The position numbers and the translations under genes were made by a program. The notes under the pieces were generated by a model. That model worked only from the letters and a program-made list of their open reading frames with translations. It had not been told where the DNA came from and made no database searches. Below are positions 305 through 7,755 of a DNA stretch of 7,755 bases, piece after piece. Source of the stretch: JAHJDO01 sp030671985 [NCBI: bacterium] (GTDB lineage Bacteria > JAHJDO01); the NCBI GenBank assembly GCA_030671985.1, contig DAOVHI010000063.1, positions 1 through 7,755 of the forward strand, in the 5' to 3' direction. Position 1 is the stretch's first letter; the number at the start of each line of letters is the position of its first letter.

Positions 305-2404
305 ATGGCTAAATCACTTGTCATTGTTGAATCGCCTGCGAAGGCGAAAACGATTAACCGCTATTTGGGTTCGGGTTTTGTTGTAAAATCATCCATGGGG
401 CATATTATCGACTTGCCTGCAAAAGAATTCGGAGTAGACCTTGAGCATGATTTTAAACCTAAGTATGTTACCATAAAGGGCAAACAAAAAATCCTGAATG
501 AACTGGCTGCGCAGGCACGAAAATCTAATACAATCTATCTTGCGACTGACCCGGACAGAGAAGGAGAAGCAATATCCTGGCATTTGAAAAATTCAATATG
601 CAAGGATAAAAAAGTCTTTCGCGTTCTTCTTCCTGAAATTACCTCATCTTCGGTAAAATCCGCTTTTGATAATACGCTGGATATTAAAATGGATAAGGTG
701 AATGCTCAGCAAGCTAGAAGAATTCTGGACAGGGTTGTAGGATATAAGATCAGTCCCGTTTTATGGAAGAAAGTTGGAAAGAACTTAAGTGCCGGAAGAG
801 TTCAGTCTGTTACCGTCAGAATTATAATTGACAGAGAAAGAGAGATTGAAAAGTTCAAGCCCGAAGAGTATTGGTCGATAATAGCTGATCTTAAAACTTC
901 TGCCAATGGAAGCTTGAAGGCGAAGTTATCTAAGCTTAAGGTTACAAATAAGGCGCAGGCTGACAAAATAGTTGAAGATGTTGAAAATGCGGAATTTGCC
1001 GTATCTAAGACAAACATAAAAACTCAGAAAAGATCAGCTTCTCCTCCATTTATAACAAGCAGGCTTCAGCAGGAAGCAAGTTCAAAATTGCATTTTTCAT
1101 CTATGAGAACGATGAGAATTGCGCAGCAACTCTATGAAGGGATTGAAACGGGTAAAAGCACAGCAGGATTAATTACTTATATGCGTACAGATTCTGTACG
1201 CGTATCGGCGGAGGCTCTTAAAGCAGTAAGGAATTACATAAAAAATAAATACGGAGAACAGTATCTGCCGCCTAAATCTAATTTTTATAAAAGTAAAAAA
1301 AGCGCTCAAGACGCGCATGAGGCAATTCGCCCGACAAGCACTTCAAGAGATCCTGAAACAATTAAAAAATTTCTTACAAATGATCAGTTTAAATTATACA
1401 AACTTATATGGAATAAATTTGTTGCAAGCCAGATGTCGCCTGCAATTATTCAGTCCACAGCAGTAGAGATTAAAGCAGGTAACTATATTTTTACAGCTTC
1501 AGGATCAACTGTCCTATTTTTAGGATATATGGCAATCCGCGAAAATGATACTAAAAAGAACGAGCCGGAACTGCCTCTGCTAAAAGAGTGGGATATACTG
1601 AAATTACTAAAGCTGTTACCTGAACAACACTTTACAAAGCCGCCTTCTAGATATACGGAAGGCACCTTAATACGTGCGTTGGATGAGAAAGGCATAGGAA
1701 GACCCTCAACTTATGCGCCGACAATCAACACCATACAGAACAGAAAATACGTAACAAAGATAAAAGGATTCTTTCATCCTACAAATACAGGAGTACTTAC
1801 AAATAATTTTTTAATTGAAAAATTCTCTGACATTCTTGATATAAAGTTTACCGCAGATATGGAATCCTTTCTGGATCTGATTGAAAACGGTGAAAAAAAC
1901 TGGATTGATGTGCTCAAGCAGTTTTATGCGCGTTTTGAAAAGGATATTACACAAGCTGAAACTCCGGAAAAGACCGATGTGAAATGCGAGAAATGCGGAA
2001 AGTCTATGGTTATTAGATGGAGATTCGGCAAAAAATTCTATGCGTGCACTTCATTTCCAGAATGCAGACAAACAAAAGCTATTGAAAATGATGATCCGTT
2101 GATAAAAGATATATCTCCGCAAGAGACAGAACATAAGTGCGAGAAATGCGGAAGCTCTATGCTGATAAGAACATCCAGAAGAGGGCCGTTTCTGGCATGC
2201 AGCGGCTATCCTAAATGCAAGAACACAAAGAGCATTGATAAGGAAGGAAAGATCGTAGAAAGGAAGCCCCCTGAAGAATCGGATCAGGTCTGCGAAAAGT
2301 GCGGTAGCAAAATGCTGATAAAAACAAATCGGCGGGGACAAAAATTTCTAGCATGCGGCGGCTATCCTAAATGTAAAAACGCAAAGCCTCTGCCAAAATC
2401 ATAA
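305..2404 (+). CDS. topA: DNA topoisomerase I (type IA), omega protein
   Basis: Relaxes negative supercoils by cutting one strand through a 5'-phosphotyrosine link. The 699 residues read in order: a TOPRIM domain with catalytic Glu9 ('VIVESPAKAKTI') and the acidic DxDxE motif in 'TDPDREGEAISWHL' (Asp82, Asp84, Glu86); the core with 'LSAGRVQSV' at 161-169; the active-site Tyr292 in 'GLITYMRTDS'; 'AHEAIRPT' at 337-344; and 'YTEGTLIRALDEKGIGRPST' at 450-469. Three C-terminal tetracysteine zinc ribbons follow, with cysteines at 561/564/581/587, 612/615/632/638 and 663/666/684/690. The length fits a three-ribbon TopA. The ATG at 305 is chosen because the conserved N-terminus starts there and an AAGGA ribosome binding site lies 8 nt upstream (292-296), inside the end of dprA. 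All catalytic residues are present, so it should be active. Confidence 0.98.
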   Translation: MAKSLVIVESPAKAKTINRYLGSGFVVKSSMGHIIDLPAKEFGVDLEHDFKPKYVTIKGKQKILNELAAQARKSNTIYLATDPDREGEAISWHLKNSICKDKKVFRVLLPEITSSSVKSAFDNTLDIKMDKVNAQQARRILDRVVGYKISPVLWKKVGKNLSAGRVQSVTVRIIIDREREIEKFKPEEYWSIIADLKTSANGSLKAKLSKLKVTNKAQADKIVEDVENAEFAVSKTNIKTQKRSASPPFITSRLQQEASSKLHFSSMRTMRIAQQLYEGIETGKSTAGLITYMRTDSVRVSAEALKAVRNYIKNKYGEQYLPPKSNFYKSKKSAQDAHEAIRPTSTSRDPETIKKFLTNDQFKLYKLIWNKFVASQMSPAIIQSTAVEIKAGNYIFTASGSTVLFLGYMAIRENDTKKNEPELPLLKEWDILKLLKLLPEQHFTKPPSRYTEGTLIRALDEKGIGRPSTYAPTINTIQNRKYVTKIKGFFHPTNTGVLTNNFLIEKFSDILDIKFTADMESFLDLIENGEKNWIDVLKQFYARFEKDITQAETPEKTDVKCEKCGKSMVIRWRFGKKFYACTSFPECRQTKAIENDDPLIKDISPQETEHKCEKCGSSMLIRTSRRGPFLACSGYPKCKNTKSIDKEGKIVERKPPEESDQVCEKCGSKMLIKTNRRGQKFLACGGYPKCKNAKPLPKS

Positions 2405-2406
2405 GC

Positions 2407-2616
2407 ATGAAAAAGCTTCTTCTTCATTATTGCTGGGTAACTAAAGCTCAGAGAGCTGAGTTTTTTCCCATAGTGACAGTAGTCTTTGCTTTCGGAGTTT
2501 TTGGAGTATATTCATTCATAATAATCAGAAAACTCATTATGGAATTGGCAAGGCACAGCAACATAAGGAAAGAAGAAGGAAGGATAAAGAAGGATAAAGG
2601 GGTCAACTCCCTTTAA
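2407..2616 (+). CDS. doubtful small single-helix membrane protein, C-terminus supplied by a repeat
   Basis: The ORF has 69 codons and starts 2 nt after topA. It has no Shine-Dalgarno sequence, so only translational coupling could start it. Residues about 20-40 are strongly hydrophobic ('FPIVTVVFAFGVFGVYSF') and are followed by a basic tail, as expected for a one-pass inner-membrane peptide with the positive end inside. Two points argue against a normal gene. A terminator-like hairpin sits inside its first third. Its last residues, KGVNSL, and its stop codon come from the REP-like repeat at 2594-2621 rather than from the gene itself. It may be the truncated front of a gene hit by the transposon, or a chance ORF. 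No family is recognised. Confidence 0.35.
   Translation: MKKLLLHYCWVTKAQRAEFFPIVTVVFAFGVFGVYSFIIIRKLIMELARHSNIRKEEGRIKKDKGVNSL
2443..2466 (+). terminator. probable intrinsic terminator after topA
   Basis: CTCAG (2447-2451) and CTGAG (2456-2460) form a 5-bp stem around an AGAG loop. The stem can be extended by AAAG pairing with TTTT (one G-T wobble), and six T residues (2461-2466) follow immediately. It lies about 40 nt past the topA stop, a normal place for the terminator of a dprA-topA transcript. The G+C part of the stem is short, so termination may be partial. It falls inside the small ORF starting at 2407, which weakens that ORF. Confidence 0.6.
2580..2599 (+). repeat. 10-bp perfect tandem duplication at the left edge of the transposon
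   Basis: AAGGATAAAG occurs twice in a row (2580-2589 and 2590-2599), and the second copy runs into the GGGG of the left REP-like repeat. A different short tandem duplication sits at the right edge (3320-3335). It could be slippage or a trace of insertion or excision. Confidence 0.85.
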
Positions 2617-2621
2617 TCTTG
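2594..2621 (+). repeat. REP-like hairpin repeat, copy 1 (left end of RAYT element)
   Basis: The core is GGGGTCAACTCCC at 2599-2611. With flanking AAA and TTT it folds on this strand into a 7-bp stem (one G-T pair) with a TCAAC loop (2596-2614). All 28 bases recur perfectly, in the same orientation, at 4203-4230. A 17-bp inverted copy lies at 3305-3321. The repeat gives the KGVNSL-stop ending to any ORF entering in this frame, and its last bases form the start of the transposase -35 box. Confidence 0.9.
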
Positions 2622-2653: not shown

Positions 2654-3316
2654 ATGCCAAGACAAGTACGAATAATCATACCGCATGAAGCTCATCATGT
2701 AACTCAACGTGGAAATTATCGTCAAGAGATATTTGAAGAAGAAGAAGATTTTAAACAATATCTTACGTGGCTTAAAGAATATTCAAGAAAATGCAAAATT
2801 GATATTCTTGCTTATTGCTTGATGACTAATCATGTGCATATTATTGGAATTCCAAACGATAAAGAATCTTTTGCAAAGGCATTCAATAGTCTTGCTATGA
2901 GATACTCACAGTATATAAATCGCAAAAGAGAATCATACGGTCATGTATGGCAGGGGAGATACTTTTCATGTGTCTTAGATGAAATATATCTATATCGTGC
3001 AATTCGGTACGTAGAACAAAATCCGGTAAGAGCAAAGATGGTAGAAAACGCATGGGATTATAAATGGTCAAGTGCGAGAACACATGTAGGAATAGAAGCA
3101 GATTCAACTATTCTACTGAAGAAGACATTTAATATGGATACAGAGGAGTGGAGACAGTATTTAAAAGAAGTTGATGAAGAAGCAGATAAAGAGGTGAGGT
3201 TAAAGACAAAAAGAGGTCTAGTAGCAGGAACAGAAGCATTTATCGAAAAGTTAGAGAAAAGATTGAAACGTTCACTAAAATGTTTAGGTCCTGGCAGACC
3301 TAAAAAAGGGAGTTGA
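2654..3316 (+). CDS. REP-associated tyrosine transposase (Y1_Tnp, IS200-like, RAYT)
   Basis: This is an HUH-type single-strand transposase that nicks at REP hairpins through a tyrosine. Residues 1-20 carry the family opening ending in 'HHVTQRGN'. The metal-binding HxH motif is His60 and His62 in 'MTNHVHII'. The block 'GHVWQGRYFSCVLDE' is at 96-110. The helix 'YLYRAIRYVEQNPVRA' (112-127) carries the likely catalytic tyrosine, probably Tyr119. 'YKWSSARTHVG' at 136-146 is another family signature. The basic C-terminus 'GPGRPKK' is typical of RAYTs. At 220 residues it is full length with no frame break, so it may still be active. The start at 2654 is set by the conserved N-terminus, although no ribosome binding site precedes it. 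The stop TGA is part of the right inverted repeat (GGGAGTTGACCCC). Confidence 0.92.
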   Translation: MPRQVRIIIPHEAHHVTQRGNYRQEIFEEEEDFKQYLTWLKEYSRKCKIDILAYCLMTNHVHIIGIPNDKESFAKAFNSLAMRYSQYINRKRESYGHVWQGRYFSCVLDEIYLYRAIRYVEQNPVRAKMVENAWDYKWSSARTHVGIEADSTILLKKTFNMDTEEWRQYLKEVDEEADKEVRLKTKRGLVAGTEAFIEKLEKRLKRSLKCLGPGRPKKGS

Positions 3317-3321
3317 CCCCT
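3305..3321 (-). repeat. REP-like repeat, inverted copy 2 (right end of RAYT element)
   Basis: This is the reverse complement of 17 bases of copy 1 (AGGGGTCAACTCCCTTT on the minus strand). It contains the TGA stop of the transposase, so the last codons of the gene lie inside the transposon end. It lacks the extra conserved TAATCTTG seen in the other two copies. Confidence 0.9.
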
Positions 3322-3335
3322 ATTTACCTATTTAC
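3320..3335 (+). repeat. 8-bp tandem duplication at the right edge of the transposon
   Basis: CTATTTAC is repeated directly (3320-3327, 3328-3335), overlapping the outer two bases of the right repeat. It mirrors the tandem duplication at the left edge but has a different sequence. Confidence 0.8.
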
Positions 3336-3547: not shown

Positions 3548-3826
3548 ATGGAACTAAATAAAAAAGAAAGAAAATTATTATCTAAACTTAATAAGATGTG
3601 TAAGAGAAAAAGGCAATGGTATTCCGTCATAGTTTTAATGTTGTTTGTGTCCATCATATATTTGTTAATATTTATAAACTCAAGAGAAGGAGAGCACCTG
3701 TTAATGTCAATACTCTTTTTTTTCATGTCGCTATATGCATTAGATACGTTGAAAGTCGCACAATTATTAAAGAAGATTTATTCTATTAATCTTGATAAAA
3801 ATATTTCAACAAATTCATCTTCTTAA
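3548..3826 (+). CDS. small two-helix membrane protein, unknown function
   Basis: The 92-residue ORF has the strongest ribosome binding site in the accessory region: AGGAGGAGG at 3532-3540, 7 nt before the ATG. A basic, cytoplasmic-looking N-terminus (KKERK...KRKRQ) precedes two hydrophobic segments, about residues 24-44 (around 'YSVIVLMLFVSIIYLLIFI') and 51-70 (around 'LLMSILFFFMSLYALD'). A short charged loop separates them and a polar tail follows (ending NISTNSSS). The layout suggests a hairpin in the inner membrane. It lies 75 nt after the orphan coding tail and before an Rhs fragment, the place where an immunity protein of a polymorphic toxin would sit. That is inference from position only. 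No family is recognised. Confidence 0.65.
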   Translation: MELNKKERKLLSKLNKMCKRKRQWYSVIVLMLFVSIIYLLIFINSREGEHLLMSILFFFMSLYALDTLKVAQLLKKIYSINLDKNISTNSSS

Positions 3827-3892: not shown

Positions 3893-3985
3893 ATGCCACG
3901 AACCAACCTCGCTCTAAAACTCAAAGATTTTGAAGAAGATTATTGCTCCCCTTATATTGTAGATAATTTCTACAACACCCTACCT
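3893..3985 (+). repeat. 31-codon module, copy A
   Basis: This stretch aligns without gaps to 4265-4357: 17 of 31 residues are identical, including NLALKL, DFE, DYC, P, V and LP. Many base differences are synonymous (aac/aat, gct/gcg, cta/tta, ctc/cta, tat/tac, cta/ctg, cct/cca). Both copies are preceded by CTAAATG, with an in-frame TAA directly before the ATG. Confidence 0.7.
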
Positions 3986-4225
3986 GACAACATTGTTCAA
4001 TTTCCTATTTCAAAAACGAACGATGATATAAATCAATTGAGCGGTGAAGTTAAGGCAGACAGCGCCGCTCAGGAGCTTTACAGCTACAACTATAGCTTTG
4101 ATGCCGTAGGCAACAGACTCAATCTAAACAAGAACGTAGCTCCTTCAGCCACTAATATTCCCAATCCAGGCTTCTGGGATATGCCGAACTCAACATATTT
4201 TAATAAAGGGGTCAACTCCCTTTAA
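3893..4225 (+). pseudogene. Rhs-like fragment with a fused N-terminal module, ended by a REP-like repeat
   Basis: The ORF has 110 codons with an AGGA ribosome binding site (3882-3885) 7 nt before the ATG. Residues 1-31 form a module ('NLALKLKDFEEDYC...P...V...LP') that recurs at 4265. From about residue 42 the sequence is Rhs/YD-like: 'NDDINQLSGEV', then 'YSYNYSFDAVGNRLNLN' at 63-79, matching the Y-[ST]-[YF]-D-A-V-G-N-R-L signature of Rhs repeats. Whole Rhs proteins have well over a thousand residues, so this is a small piece. The last six residues, KGVNSL, and the stop come from the third REP-like repeat, so the original C-terminus is lost. It may still be expressed, but it is most likely debris of an Rhs gene. 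Confidence 0.6.
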
Positions 4226-4230
4226 TCTTG
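4203..4230 (+). repeat. solo REP-like hairpin repeat, copy 3
   Basis: Identical over 28 bases to 2594-2621 and in the same orientation, but with no transposase gene next to it. The next bases differ (GTAAGAG instead of ACATATA), so the TTGACA -35 box of copy 1 is absent. It is either a dispersed REP mobilised by the nearby RAYT or one end of a second, decayed element. It truncates the Rhs-like ORF. Confidence 0.9.
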
Positions 4231-4264
4231 GTAAGAGATAAAAGAAAAAAAACAAACAAGCTAA

Positions 4265-4357
4265 ATGATAATTGGTAATCTCGCGTTAAAACTAGAAGAT
4301 TTTGAAGACGATTACTGCTATCCTCATCTTGTAAACGATTACGAAGAAAATCTGCCA
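4265..4357 (+). repeat. 31-codon module, copy B
   Basis: Paralogue of the stretch at 3893-3985. The residues in common include NLALKL, DFE, DYC and the closing LP. The sequence after the LP is unrelated between the copies (Rhs-like in A, HTH remnant in B). Confidence 0.7.
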
Positions 4358-4761: not shown

Positions 4762-6336
4762 ATGATTGAATTGTTAACTAGTTATGTTTTTTGGTTTGTA
4801 ACTGCGGGAGTTGGACTCGGTTTTGGTGCGGCAGGGTATGTAATTAGAAAATATGTGGCTGAGTCGAAGACAAAGAGAGCAGAAAAGTATGTTAAGGAAA
4901 TATTAAAAGATGCAGAAAAGGGGATTGAGACAAAGCGGAAGGAACTGGATCTAGAAGCAAAAGGTGAACTGTATAGGATAAGATCTGCATTTGAGCAAGA
5001 GACCAGCGCGAAAAGAAGAGAGCTTTCTGCTCTTGAGAGCAAGATAAACCAAAAAGAATCAAATCTGGATAGAAAAGTTGATCTGTGGGAAAGAAGAGAA
5101 CGGGAGATTACAAATAAAGAAAATAACATAAGGCAAAGAACAGAAGACATAAGCAAAAGACAGACAGAACTTACTCAAGTACTGGAAGAGGAAAAAAGAA
5201 GTCTCCAAAGAATTGCCGGACTTACCCAGGAAAAAGCCAAAGAAATATTTCTTGCCAAGATAGCTGAGGAAGCTAAATACGATGCGGCACTTTTAGCAAA
5301 GAAAATAGAAGACGAGTCTTTGGAAGAAGCTCAGAAAAAGGCCAAAGAAATCATAGCCATAGCAATTCAGAGATGCGCTGCGGAATACACCGCTGAATCA
5401 ACAGTGTCTGTTGTATCTTTACCAAACGACGAAATGAAAGGACGCATCATTGGCCGTGAGGGCAGGAATATTCGTGCGTTTGAAACAGCAACAGGCATAA
5501 ATATTATTGTTGATGATACTCCGGGAGCGGTTATACTTTCTGGCTTTGATCCTGTAAGAAGAGAAATTGCAAAAATCGCTTTGGAAAAACTTATTGCAGA
5601 TGGAAGAATCCATCCCGGCAGAATAGAAGAAATCGTAGAAAAAGCTGACAGAGAAGTTCAAATTACTATAAAAGAAGCTGGGGAACAGACTGCCTTAGAA
5701 GTTGGGGTTCAAGGACTCAACACAGAAGAGATAAAACTGATCGGGCGTCTGAAGTATAGAACAAGTTACGGACAGAATATATTGCAGCATTCAAAGGAGG
5801 CAGCTTATCTTGCAGGAGCAATGGCTGCAGAATTGGGACAGGATATAAAGACAGCAAAACGCGCGGGTCTCTTGCATGACATAGGTAAGGCTGTGGATCA
5901 TGAAGTAGAAGGTACACATGCATTGATAGGCGCAGACTTGGCAAAGAAGTACGGGGAACCGGATAATATAGTTTATGCAATCGCTTCACATCATGAAGAA
6001 AAACCAACGGATACTATTCTTTCCGTGCTTATTCAGGCAGCTGACGCAATCTCTGCGGCGCGGCCAGGAGTGAGGCGCGAAACATTTGAAAAATATGTAA
6101 AGCGGCTGGAAGAATTAGAAAGTATTGCAACATCATTTTCAGGGGTTAATAAAACATATGCAATTAATGCCGGCAGAGAAATCAGGGTCATGGTTGAGCC
6201 TGACAAGGTAAGCGATACGGAAAGCGTTAAACTTTTACGGGATATAAGTAAGAAAATAGAAGAAACCCTGAATTATCCGGGACAGATTAAGGTTACTTTG
6301 ATTCGCGAGACTAGAGTAGTTGATTACGCGAAATAG
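4762..6336 (+). CDS. rny: ribonuclease Y
   Basis: A membrane-anchored endoribonuclease that starts mRNA decay. At 524 residues it is close to the usual ~520. In order: a transmembrane anchor (about 5-28, '[20 protein letters not shown]'); a long Lys/Glu-rich coiled coil (about 33-210); a KH RNA-binding domain with the GxxG loop Gly231-Arg-Glu-Gly234 in '[15 protein letters not shown]'; and an HD phosphohydrolase domain with His343 ('[10 protein letters not shown]'), the metal-binding His372-Asp373 pair in '[12 protein letters not shown]', and 'IASHHEE' at 407-413. The C-terminal '[18 protein letters not shown]' is the family ending. AAGGGGG at 4745-4751 serves as ribosome binding site, 10 nt before the ATG. 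The next gene, a ymdB homologue, is its usual neighbour. Confidence 0.98.
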
Positions 6337-6344
6337 ATAGAAAA

Positions 6345-7133
6345 ATGGCCAAAATTAAAATTCTTTTTATTGGTGATATCGTTGGCAGAGCCGGGCGCTG
6401 CGCAGTAGAAAAACTGGTTCCAGCCTTATTGAATGCAGATAGCATAGACGTATGTATAGCAAATGGAGAGAATGCCGCTGGAGGTAAAGGCATTACGCAA
6501 AACATATCCAAACAGCTTTTTTCTTATGGAATCGATATTATAACATCAGGCAATCACATATGGAGCAATAAGGACATACTAGGTGCTTTGGACATAAACG
6601 GGAGAATACTGCGGCCTGCAAACTACCCTGACGGAGTCAAAGGTATTGGCTCTGCAATAGTTAAAAGCAAGAATGGACATGTAGTCGGAATCATAAATCT
6701 TATGGGACGTATTTTTATGCAACCTTTAGACTGTCCTTTTAAGGCAGCGGAGAGAGAGATAGAAAAATTAAAAAACAAAACGATGGTAAATATTATAGAT
6801 TTTCACGCTGAGGCAACATCTGAAAAGGTGGCTTTAGGCAGGTACTTAGATGGCAAAGTTACTGCAGTATTAGGAACTCATACCCATGTTCAAACTGCTG
6901 ACGAGAAGATTTTTTCTAGGGGCACGGCTTATATAACAGATGTTGGAATGACAGGTCCTCATGATTCAATAATAGGCGCAAAAAAAGACCCCATTCTTCA
7001 GCGTTTTCTAACACAAGTCCCTGTTAAAATCGAAGCTGCTTCAGATGATATTCAGCTGAATGGGGTAATTATCGAAGCGGATTGTGATTCCGGAAAAGCG
7101 TTATCTATTAAAAGAATAAGTAAGAAGCTATAG
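6345..7133 (+). CDS. ymdB: YmdB-family metallophosphoesterase (TIGR00282)
   Basis: A cytoplasmic two-metal phosphoesterase. The Bacillus subtilis homologue YmdB hydrolyses cyclic nucleotides (2',3'-cNMP) and influences biofilm and motility decisions. The 262 residues match the family length. Metal and catalytic residues are all visible: Asp11 in 'FIGDIVGRAG', Glu42-Asn43 in 'ANGENAAGGKGIT', Asn70-His71 in 'TSGNHIWSNKD', His154 in 'IIDFHAEATSEK', and His179/His181 in 'VLGTHTHVQTAD'. 'YITDVGMTGPHDSIIG' is also characteristic. It starts 8 nt after the rny stop with only a weak AG-rich stretch upstream, so translation is probably coupled to rny. The rny-ymdB pairing is widespread and suggests linked roles in RNA turnover. 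Confidence 0.95.
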   Translation: MAKIKILFIGDIVGRAGRCAVEKLVPALLNADSIDVCIANGENAAGGKGITQNISKQLFSYGIDIITSGNHIWSNKDILGALDINGRILRPANYPDGVKGIGSAIVKSKNGHVVGIINLMGRIFMQPLDCPFKAAEREIEKLKNKTMVNIIDFHAEATSEKVALGRYLDGKVTAVLGTHTHVQTADEKIFSRGTAYITDVGMTGPHDSIIGAKKDPILQRFLTQVPVKIEAASDDIQLNGVIIEADCDSGKALSIKRISKKL

Positions 7134-7136
7134 ACA

Positions 7137-7755
7137 ATTATTAATTTAAAATTCTCCCTCATCCTTTTATTCTCTATTTTCTTAGCCACAAGTTGTTCTC
7201 CCAAAGTCATTCGTTACGAAGAAACAAAACTCTTAATGGGCACAGAAGTAAATATCATCGTTGTTGGCAGCAACAGAACAATAATGCGCTCAGCAGTCCG
7301 GGCGGGGTTTAGAGAAATATCAAGAATAGAAGATATTATGAGCGCTTACAAACGGGATAGTGAACTATGCTTGCTAAATAAAACAGGTGGAGGCGGGCAA
7401 AAATTCAGTAGAGAACTTCTGTATGTGATAAATAAAGCCAGTTACGCTTCGGAATTATCAGATGGTGCATTTGATATTACATGTAAACCGTTAATTGATC
7501 TATGGCATAACGTTAGGAAAACAAAGAAACTTCCTGACGCGCAGAATATTTCAAATGCTTTATCTGTTGTTGGATATAGGGATATTTCAATAAAGGATAA
7601 TAGTGTTAAGTTTGATAAAGCAGGTATGAAAATTGGCTTGGGCGCGTTAGCCAAGGGATACGCAGTAGATATGGCTATAAATCTTATTAAGAATTATGAC
7701 ATTAATGGAGCTTTGATTGATGCAGGAGGTGATATCAGAGCTATTGGCAAACGAG
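7137..7755 (+). CDS. apbE: ApbE-like FAD:protein FMN transferase, lipoprotein (3' end outside window; non-standard start)
   Basis: ApbE transfers FMN from FAD onto threonines of exported redox proteins such as Rnf/Nqr subunits. The frame is open from just after the ymdB stop to the window end (about 206 codons). It begins with a lipoprotein signal: Lys5, a hydrophobic run 'FSLILLFSIFLATSC', and lipidated Cys20. The family blocks follow: 'LLMGTEVNIIV', 'ISRIEDIMSAYKRDSEL', 'SDGAFDITCKPLIDLW' at 108-123, 'IGLGALAKGYAVD' at 166-178, and 'LIDAGGDIRAIGK' at 193-205. No ATG, GTG or TTG lies in frame between the ymdB TAG and the signal peptide. The start is placed at ATT 7137 (ATT 7140 is equally possible); numbering follows that choice. 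The first in-frame ATG (7236) would remove the signal. The frame is the same as ymdB, separated by its stop codon. Confidence 0.85.
   Translation, partial: MINLKFSLILLFSIFLATSCSPKVIRYEETKLLMGTEVNIIVVGSNRTIMRSAVRAGFREISRIEDIMSAYKRDSELCLLNKTGGGGQKFSRELLYVINKASYASELSDGAFDITCKPLIDLWHNVRKTKKLPDAQNISNALSVVGYRDISIKDNSVKFDKAGMKIGLGALAKGYAVDMAINLIKNYDINGALIDAGGDIRAIGKR

What the first reader, a model, noticed from the sequence alone, without database searches (positions are those of the whole stretch)
3893..4357. A 31-residue module duplicated in front of two unrelated gene remnants
Copies at 3893-3985 and 4265-4357 share 17 of 31 residues, aligned without gaps from the ATG to an LP. At least seven codon differences are synonymous, which suggests selection on the protein. 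After the LP one copy continues into Rhs-like sequence and the other into an HTH remnant. Both have the context CTAAATG. A shared N-terminal piece on different bodies could be a sorting or docking tag, or the shared front of a recombining cassette family. I do not recognise the NLALKL-DFE-DYC motif.
Basis: partly seen in the sequence, partly recalled or inferred. Interest (0 to 1): 0.65.

Follow-up and report, generated by a model that had tools for sequence, protein, structure and literature searches.

The report
Shared start piece of Rhs toxin cassettes
The repeated 31-residue piece is the front of a roughly 40-residue start module that sits behind toxin-immunity genes in one small group of uncultured bacteria and gives spare Rhs toxin genes a beginning of their own; in this window both copies are relics.

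Summary
In detail: 17 of 31 residues identical, seven synonymous codon changes, score 93 against at most 33 in 200 shuffled windows. Ten more copies turned up, all in this genus (three of its five held genomes). The full module is about 40 residues. All 12 copies start directly after an in-frame stop codon; by my reading 8 of 12 follow a membrane-protein gene, presumably an immunity gene. Two copies head intact shorter Rhs genes (555 and 300 aa). In the clearest, the module joins at codon 41 a 1,252-bp second copy (82.7%) of the main Rhs gene on the same contig, with a different tip. So the module is the start of 'orphan' Rhs cassettes, which in enterobacteria usually lack start signals. Other copies are stubs running into rplP or topA tails, toxin-antitoxin or other genes. 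In the window W1 is a decayed Rhs cassette; W2 is a cut stub beside an out-of-frame HTH remnant. 'Shared front of a cassette family' is supported; a sorting tag is not. Islands sit inside ribosomal operons; at three of five sites 22-31 bp of host sequence is repeated exactly at the flanks, unexplained.

The parts
3893..4024 (+). W1: start module, full length (about 43 codons), SD-like AGGA starting 11 bases before the ATG, TAA immediately before the ATG
   Evidence: module HMM positions 1-44, 87 bits (the HMM was built with this copy in it)
4022..4135 (+). Rhs (YD-repeat) remnant in frame behind W1
   Evidence: W1 residues 44-81: 50-54% identical to three main Rhs proteins of G004 and G001; frame ends at 4225
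4265..4357 (+). W2: start module cut after residue 31, TAA immediately before the ATG, no SD-like core
   Evidence: module HMM positions 1-31, 62 bits
4351..4452 (+). C-terminal remnant of an HTH_3 (Xre-type) protein, in another frame than W2
   Evidence: PF01381 E 6.2e-4, profile 24-52 of 55, just under the curated cut-off; coordinates
4202..4306 (+). 105-bp repeat (REP-like palindrome plus module start), 90% identical to a copy on contig C123 of the same genome; likely point of a rearrangement
3548..3826 (+). 92-aa small membrane-protein-like ORF 66 bases before W1, in the position of an immunity gene
   Evidence: (only a sub-threshold 2TM match); function inferred from position
2407..2616 (+). 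69-aa ORF resembling the C-terminal half of the presumed immunity protein behind the 300-aa orphan Rhs of G004 (L018 2751-3176)
   Evidence: read side by side; no alignment run
2380..2401 (+). 22-bp topA tail, repeated exactly behind the module copy on contig C123 (L070)
2654..3316 (+). IS200/REP-associated-type transposase (Y1_Tnp) that has landed in the relic island
   Evidence: PF01797 E 2.4e-14; flanking inverted repeats

Best explanation
The module is the translation-start cap of 'orphan' Rhs toxin cassettes in one genus of uncultured bacteria. A full island reads: large Rhs gene with C-terminal toxin tip - immunity gene(s), stop codon - ATG module - second copy of the 3' half of the Rhs gene with another tip - its immunity gene - ATG module (stub) - next chromosomal gene. 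Shown: the order, the in-frame joins, the second Rhs copy, the stop-ATG junction, the codon pattern. Inferred: that the small membrane ORFs are immunity genes; that the ribosome which finishes them (or binds the AGGA in front) starts again at the module, so that the spare cassette is made as a non-exported protein; that the cassette's Rhs half lets it recombine with the main gene and swap tips; and that stubs persist because they pass translation on to the gene behind. In the window the island has decayed: W1 still carries a piece of Rhs, W2 was cut, probably when two module-bearing repeats recombined.
For: 12 copies in G000, G001 and G004, none accepted in G002 and G003, the same three-versus-two split as RHS_repeat. 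The module lies behind the presumed immunity gene(s) in 6 of 7 contigs with a visible main-Rhs 3' end. L017a: module joins at codon 41 a 1,252-bp, 82.7% copy of the main Rhs gene on the same contig, and the two tips differ after DPxGL; a 126-aa membrane-like ORF follows. L018a: module plus Rhs, then a 141-aa ORF. Stop codon directly before the ATG in 12 of 12 copies, SD-like core starting 10-17 bases upstream in 8 of 12, gap to the preceding ORF 9 bases or less in 5 of 12. Codon-position bias after parsimony correction: 31/18/37 changes, p 0.037 (6 copies, 31 codons) and 15/10/28, p 0.0075 (8 copies, 18 codons); pN/pS 0.35 and 0.30 in frame, 0.64-1.22 in the shifted frames.
Against: No expression data. 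Only two of 12 copies head an intact Rhs gene; the rest are stubs or relics. Four copies lack an SD-like core. One Rhs end (L069) has no module, nor has the right flank of the rpsP site, of which only 228 bases are held. Two accepted copies (L070, L018b) have E 0.015 and 0.029, no better than a dropped G002 row (E 0.012, three stops); they were kept for their place and, for L070, a 105-bp DNA match to W2. Before L017a stand a TPR-like and a 282-aa ORF, not a small membrane gene. Copies are related, so counts are not independent; selection could predate the decay into stubs. Immunity function rests on position only.
Confidence: 0.66

Rival explanations
1. Plain ancestry: one short Rhs gene with this N-terminus arose once, was duplicated behind many Rhs islands, and nearly all copies are now dead; the module has no role beyond having been that gene's start.
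For: W1 and L017a join Rhs at the same kind of YD-repeat position (...DINQL / ...NQLVQ); most copies are truncated; low pN/pS can date from before the decay.
Against: Stubs keep the ATG and the stop-ATG junction (12 of 12 copies; the profile search may favour copies that keep the start). Of 7 stubs with a same-strand, not visibly broken gene behind them, 5 overlap or run through that gene's start codon (L015, L018b, L019, L020, L068; not L016, L017b, read by eye; W2 and L070 left out because what follows is a remnant or lies on the other strand).
Confidence: 0.3
2. DNA anchor: the module is a homology block by which whole cassettes are gained and lost through module-module recombination; its protein sequence matters little.
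For: The arrays in L017 and L018 begin the orphan cassette with a module and end in another, as cassette insertion at a repeated site would leave; a 105-bp repeat holding the module start links two rearranged places in G000.
Against: Copies differ at about 28% of bases (389 differences over 15 pairs of 93 bases) and changes favour third codon positions; no recombinase was seen in the islands (by eye, no systematic search).
Confidence: 0.2
3. Right end of a mobile Rhs element: the whole island is copied into new sites with long target duplications, and the module is simply where its right end lies.
For: Exact repeats of host sequence at the two flanks: 31 bp at rplP|rpmC (12 module codons, 8 bases, then the repeat), 30 bp at rpsP, 22 bp at topA. 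Sites without an island: rplP|rpmC in G000, G002 and G003, rpsP in G001, topA in G002.
Against: No repeat at secY|adk and pilB|pilC (2 of 5 sites), and pilB|pilC is the only site whose two flanks lie on one contig; for the three repeats the flanks lie on different contigs, so the island between them is inferred. Repeat length varies; no module at the rpsP right flank; no transposase by reading in the complete island L068; the cut point inside the module varies.
Confidence: 0.15
4. Sorting, docking or chaperone-binding tag on different effector bodies.
For: A conserved N-terminus on otherwise different proteins.
Against: No known domain found on the module; the only intact bodies are Rhs; the low-confidence model says nothing about the module.
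Confidence: 0.07

Closest known systems
Orphan rhs-CT/rhsI modules of enterobacteria (PMC3150448, PMC3967940, PMC7043789; passages seen)
   Same: Displaced Rhs 3' fragment with another toxin tip and its own immunity gene behind a main rhs/immunity pair, sharing Rhs core sequence with the main gene.
   Different: Those fragments usually lack translation initiation signals (PMC3967940) or are started from an internal promoter and a CTG codon (PMC7043789); here a conserved ~40-codon start module, not matched in the main Rhs proteins, caps them.
Standalone toxin-immunity cassettes of polymorphic toxin systems (PMC3482391; 12 passages seen)
   Same: Cassettes that can replace the 3' end of a complete toxin gene together with its immunity gene.
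   Different: I saw no mention of a common N-terminal peptide on cassettes; 'start codon', 'N-terminal fragment' and 'direct repeat' do not occur in the held text (first 300,000 of 357,715 characters).
N-terminal regions and plugs of T6SS Rhs proteins (PMC8636562; passages seen)
   Same: N-terminal piece in front of the YD-repeat shell.
   Different: About 40 residues, no domain match; structure not resolved here.

Membership tests
Orphan rhs-CT/rhsI module | Lies downstream of a main rhs/immunity pair | tested here: met
   L017a and L018a; in the window no main rhs is left
Orphan rhs-CT/rhsI module | Shares Rhs core sequence with the main gene, tip diverges after DPxGL | tested here: met
   L017a: 1,252 bp at 82.7%, tips differ after DPLGL/DPFGL; L018a weaker, 49% over residues 52-253
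Orphan rhs-CT/rhsI module | Own immunity gene directly behind | tested here: inconclusive
   Membrane-like ORFs in the right place; immunity not testable here
Orphan rhs-CT/rhsI module | Usually lacks translation initiation signals (typical, not obligatory) | tested here: not met
   ATG with SD-like core and conserved module
Transposable element | Direct target repeats at both ends | tested here: inconclusive
   3 of 5 sites, 22-31 bp exact, flanks on different contigs
Transposable element | Encodes a transposase or integrase; fixed ends | tested here: not met
   No such ORF in the complete island L068 by reading its ORF list; the right end varies
T6SS marker or Rhs N-terminal domain (PAAR, MIX, FIX; names recalled) | Profile match on the module | tested here: not met
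   6 of 6 module-bearing proteins given to Pfam have no row on the module, at E up to 10

The most novel reading that the evidence does not exclude
Rhs toxin-immunity islands of this genus are themselves mobile: they enter essential operons (rplP|rpmC, rpsP, topA and others) by an unknown process that duplicates 20-50 bp of the target, and the module at their right end is a built-in translation relay which starts behind the last immunity gene, reads into the duplicated host tail in frame (rplP, topA) and hands the ribosome to the next essential gene.
Probability: 0.15. Interest if true: 0.78.

Novelty: new variant of a known kind. Interest (0 to 1): 0.5.

Why it matters
Here displaced Rhs cassettes carry a conserved start of their own, which bears on the open question whether orphan toxin genes are expressed or merely stored. 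The islands' place inside ribosomal protein operons, with exact repeats of host sequence at some flanks, raises a testable question on how such toxin loci arrive without breaking the host operon.

Tried and rejected
Known families for the module: Pfam, NCBIfam, PHROGs and PDB sequences gave nothing usable (best PDB row E 0.99). Viral contigs: 22 pattern stretches, none a relative. Genome contigs (84,980 species, one peptide pattern NLALKL[EK]xF[ES], so divergent forms would be missed): 17 stretches, 6 relatives, all in two MAGs. Wider genomes: 144 genomes searched with the W1 peptide; real matches in 3 genus genomes; 4 rows from other lineages (E 0.013-0.087) and one weak G000 row were dropped as unconvincing; the profile was run only on the 5 genus genomes.

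Rows dropped (16 matches at E up to 1): G002:C12 (E 0.012, three stops), G000:C16, G000:C120 and G001:C201, leaving 12. Two kept rows (G000:C123 E 0.015, G004:C24:3177 E 0.029) are no stronger by E-value than the dropped G002 row.

RpoA N-terminus (LKLKDFEMP) as the source of the module: 3.5-5.7 bits, chance level. Structure model of the 555-aa orphan: mean pLDDT 59, module under 50, so not used for a fold search. Promoter scan: 12 promoter-like sites against 5.3 expected, not interpreted. tblastn of the 555-aa orphan against plasmids: 1,502 records; the five rows listed begin at residue 36 or later, so they match the Rhs part.

In-frame count: with the very short L017b tail counted as Rhs, 8 of 11 joins are in frame (binomial 0.009); without it 7 of 10; L016 was left out. 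Copies share ancestry, so no weight is put on the p-value.

Full report
WHAT IS THERE. The window is the whole contig C34 (7,755 bases) of a 1.25-Mb genome, G000, whose phylum holds five genomes, all of one genus. Between topA (305-2404) and a ribonuclease Y-like ORF (4762-6336; both names from my reading, no profile run) lies a stretch of relics: an immunity-like ORF, a Y1_Tnp transposase with flanking repeats, a small membrane-like ORF, W1 with a piece of Rhs, a REP-like repeat, and W2 beside an HTH_3 remnant. The reported similarity is exactly as stated and far above shuffled sequence.

OTHER COPIES. A profile of eight copies found 16 matches at E up to 1 in the five genomes; four were dropped (see Tried and rejected) and 12 remain: 3 in G000, 4 in G001, 5 in G004. 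G003 has no match and G002 one dropped row. Two kept copies, L070 and L018b, are weak by E-value (0.015, 0.029) and were accepted for their place and, for L070, its DNA match to W2. RHS_repeat shows the same split, 3 of 5 genomes, with G000 holding a single match. A scan of 84,980 species with one peptide pattern found relatives only in two MAGs, CSMAG_1431 and CSMAG_2459, whose contig lengths equal those of G001 and G004 contigs. As far as searched, the module is private to this genus.

ANATOMY. The full module has about 40-43 codons, MIQGNLALKLEDFEEDYC-(variable)-LPDNIIQFP. In 12 of 12 copies the three bases before the ATG are TAA (11) or TAG (1); 8 of 12 have an SD-like core starting 10-17 bases upstream. 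In L018a, L018b and L068 that stop codon is the stop of the preceding ORF; L016 is 9 bases away and L017b overlaps the preceding ORF by 14. By reading, 8 of 12 copies follow a membrane-like ORF; L017a follows a 282-aa ORF, L019 an 827-aa Rhs-associated N-terminal fragment, and W2 and L070 follow the REP-like repeat. In 6 of 7 contigs with a visible 3' end of a large Rhs gene the module comes behind the presumed immunity gene(s); L069 is the exception.

TWO INTACT CASSETTES. In L017 the module heads a 555-aa ORF whose bases 121-1370 match the main Rhs gene of the same contig at 82.7% over 1,252 bp; the match starts at codon 41, and after DPxGL the tips differ. A 126-aa membrane-like ORF follows, and then the next module copy. 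In L018 the module heads a 300-aa Rhs ORF (49% identical to its upstream Rhs over residues 52-253), again followed by a membrane-like ORF (141 aa) and another module copy. W1 joins the module to Rhs sequence in frame (residues 44-81 50-54% identical to three main Rhs proteins). L019 keeps the module plus a short in-frame Rhs trace (GNLTNDGNW).

STUBS. The stub in L018b ends in frame in the tail of rplP (KLGVAS, stop overlapping the rpmC start), and the one on C123 (L070) ends in frame in the tail of topA (AKPLPKSN). L015 overlaps an MNT/HepT pair and L068 a HicB-like gene (Pfam). L019 overlaps an ORF that I read as PilT-like; its 70-aa fragment has no supporting Pfam match. L020 runs through the start of an ORF that I read as antitoxin-like, also without Pfam support. 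L016 and L017b do not reach the next start. W2 is cut, with the HTH remnant in another frame.

SELECTION. Differences favour third codon positions: 31/18/37 (6 copies, 31 codons; p 0.037) and 15/10/28 (8 copies, 18 codons; p 0.0075) on the most parsimonious trees. pN/pS is 0.35 and 0.30 in frame against 0.64-1.22 in the shifted frames. The evidence is moderate: the copies are few and related, and W1-W2 alone shows only 11/6/14.

ISLAND SITES. Against G000, G002 and G003, G004 has extra Rhs DNA at rplP|rpmC and secY|adk; in G001 an Rhs array ends in front of MNT/HepT-rplD, where G003 has MNT/HepT without Rhs and G000 and G002 have neither. Exact repeats of host sequence lie at both flanks at rplP|rpmC (31 bp), rpsP (30 bp; the left copy then joins the Rhs frame) and topA (22 bp), but not at secY|adk or pilB|pilC (gene names by reading). 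Only pilB|pilC has both flanks on one contig; for the others the island between the flanks is inferred across contigs. At the rpsP right flank (228 bases held) no module was found. G003 keeps a short signal-peptide-like trace before MNT/HepT, perhaps a scar. No mechanism for the repeats is known to me.

THE WINDOW'S HISTORY. In G002 four genes, among them an oxidoreductase and trpF (names by reading), lie between topA and the rny-like gene; in G000 three of them sit on C123 next to a module copy and a topA tail, and the fourth was not matched there. Window 4202-4306 and C123 share a 105-bp, 90% repeat (REP-like plus module start), and G002 sequence matched by C123 ends at 6784 while that matched by the window resumes at 6785. 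The simplest reading is recombination between two module-bearing repeats.

READING. The module works like a start cap for displaced Rhs cassettes. PMC3967940 (passages) says that orphan fragments usually lack translation initiation signals, and PMC7043789 (passages) reports an internal promoter and a CTG start for the Salmonella orphan; a conserved start module is therefore a variant. Three searches of the paper library listed 15 of 244, 10 of 656 and 8 of 181 papers; among those titles and abstract beginnings I saw no such module. Of five papers I saw passages only.

Noticed in passing
L018, L020, L015, L017, L067 (G004, G001): Large Rhs islands sit inside or at the edge of ribosomal protein and translation operons (rplP|rpmC, secY|adk, before rplD, before tuf, start of rpsP).
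   Followed up: partly
L067 reverse strand about 7253-7310: A large Rhs gene starts with the first codons of rpsP fused in frame to the usual second codon of Rhs; an intact rpsP lies on another contig (L101 229-681).
   Followed up: partly
window 2594-2621, 4203-4230; 2585-2614 with 3305-3334: Identical 28-bp REP-like element (GGGGTCAACTCCCTTT) beside the Y1_Tnp transposase and again beside W2; a relative lies in front of the C123 module copy.
   Followed up: partly
L015 5447-5466 and L068 10196-10215: The string TACGAAATACGAACAATGAA stands at the start of two unrelated toxin-antitoxin genes (MNT and HicB-like).
   Followed up: no
L015 4309-5265: Four small similar-looking membrane ORFs in a row behind one Rhs gene, perhaps an array of immunity genes.
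   Followed up: no
L086 about 1125-1240 (G003): Short ORF resembling a signal peptide also seen in L020 8485-8787 (65 bp, 88%), at a site where G001 has an Rhs island: possible scar of a lost island.
   Followed up: partly
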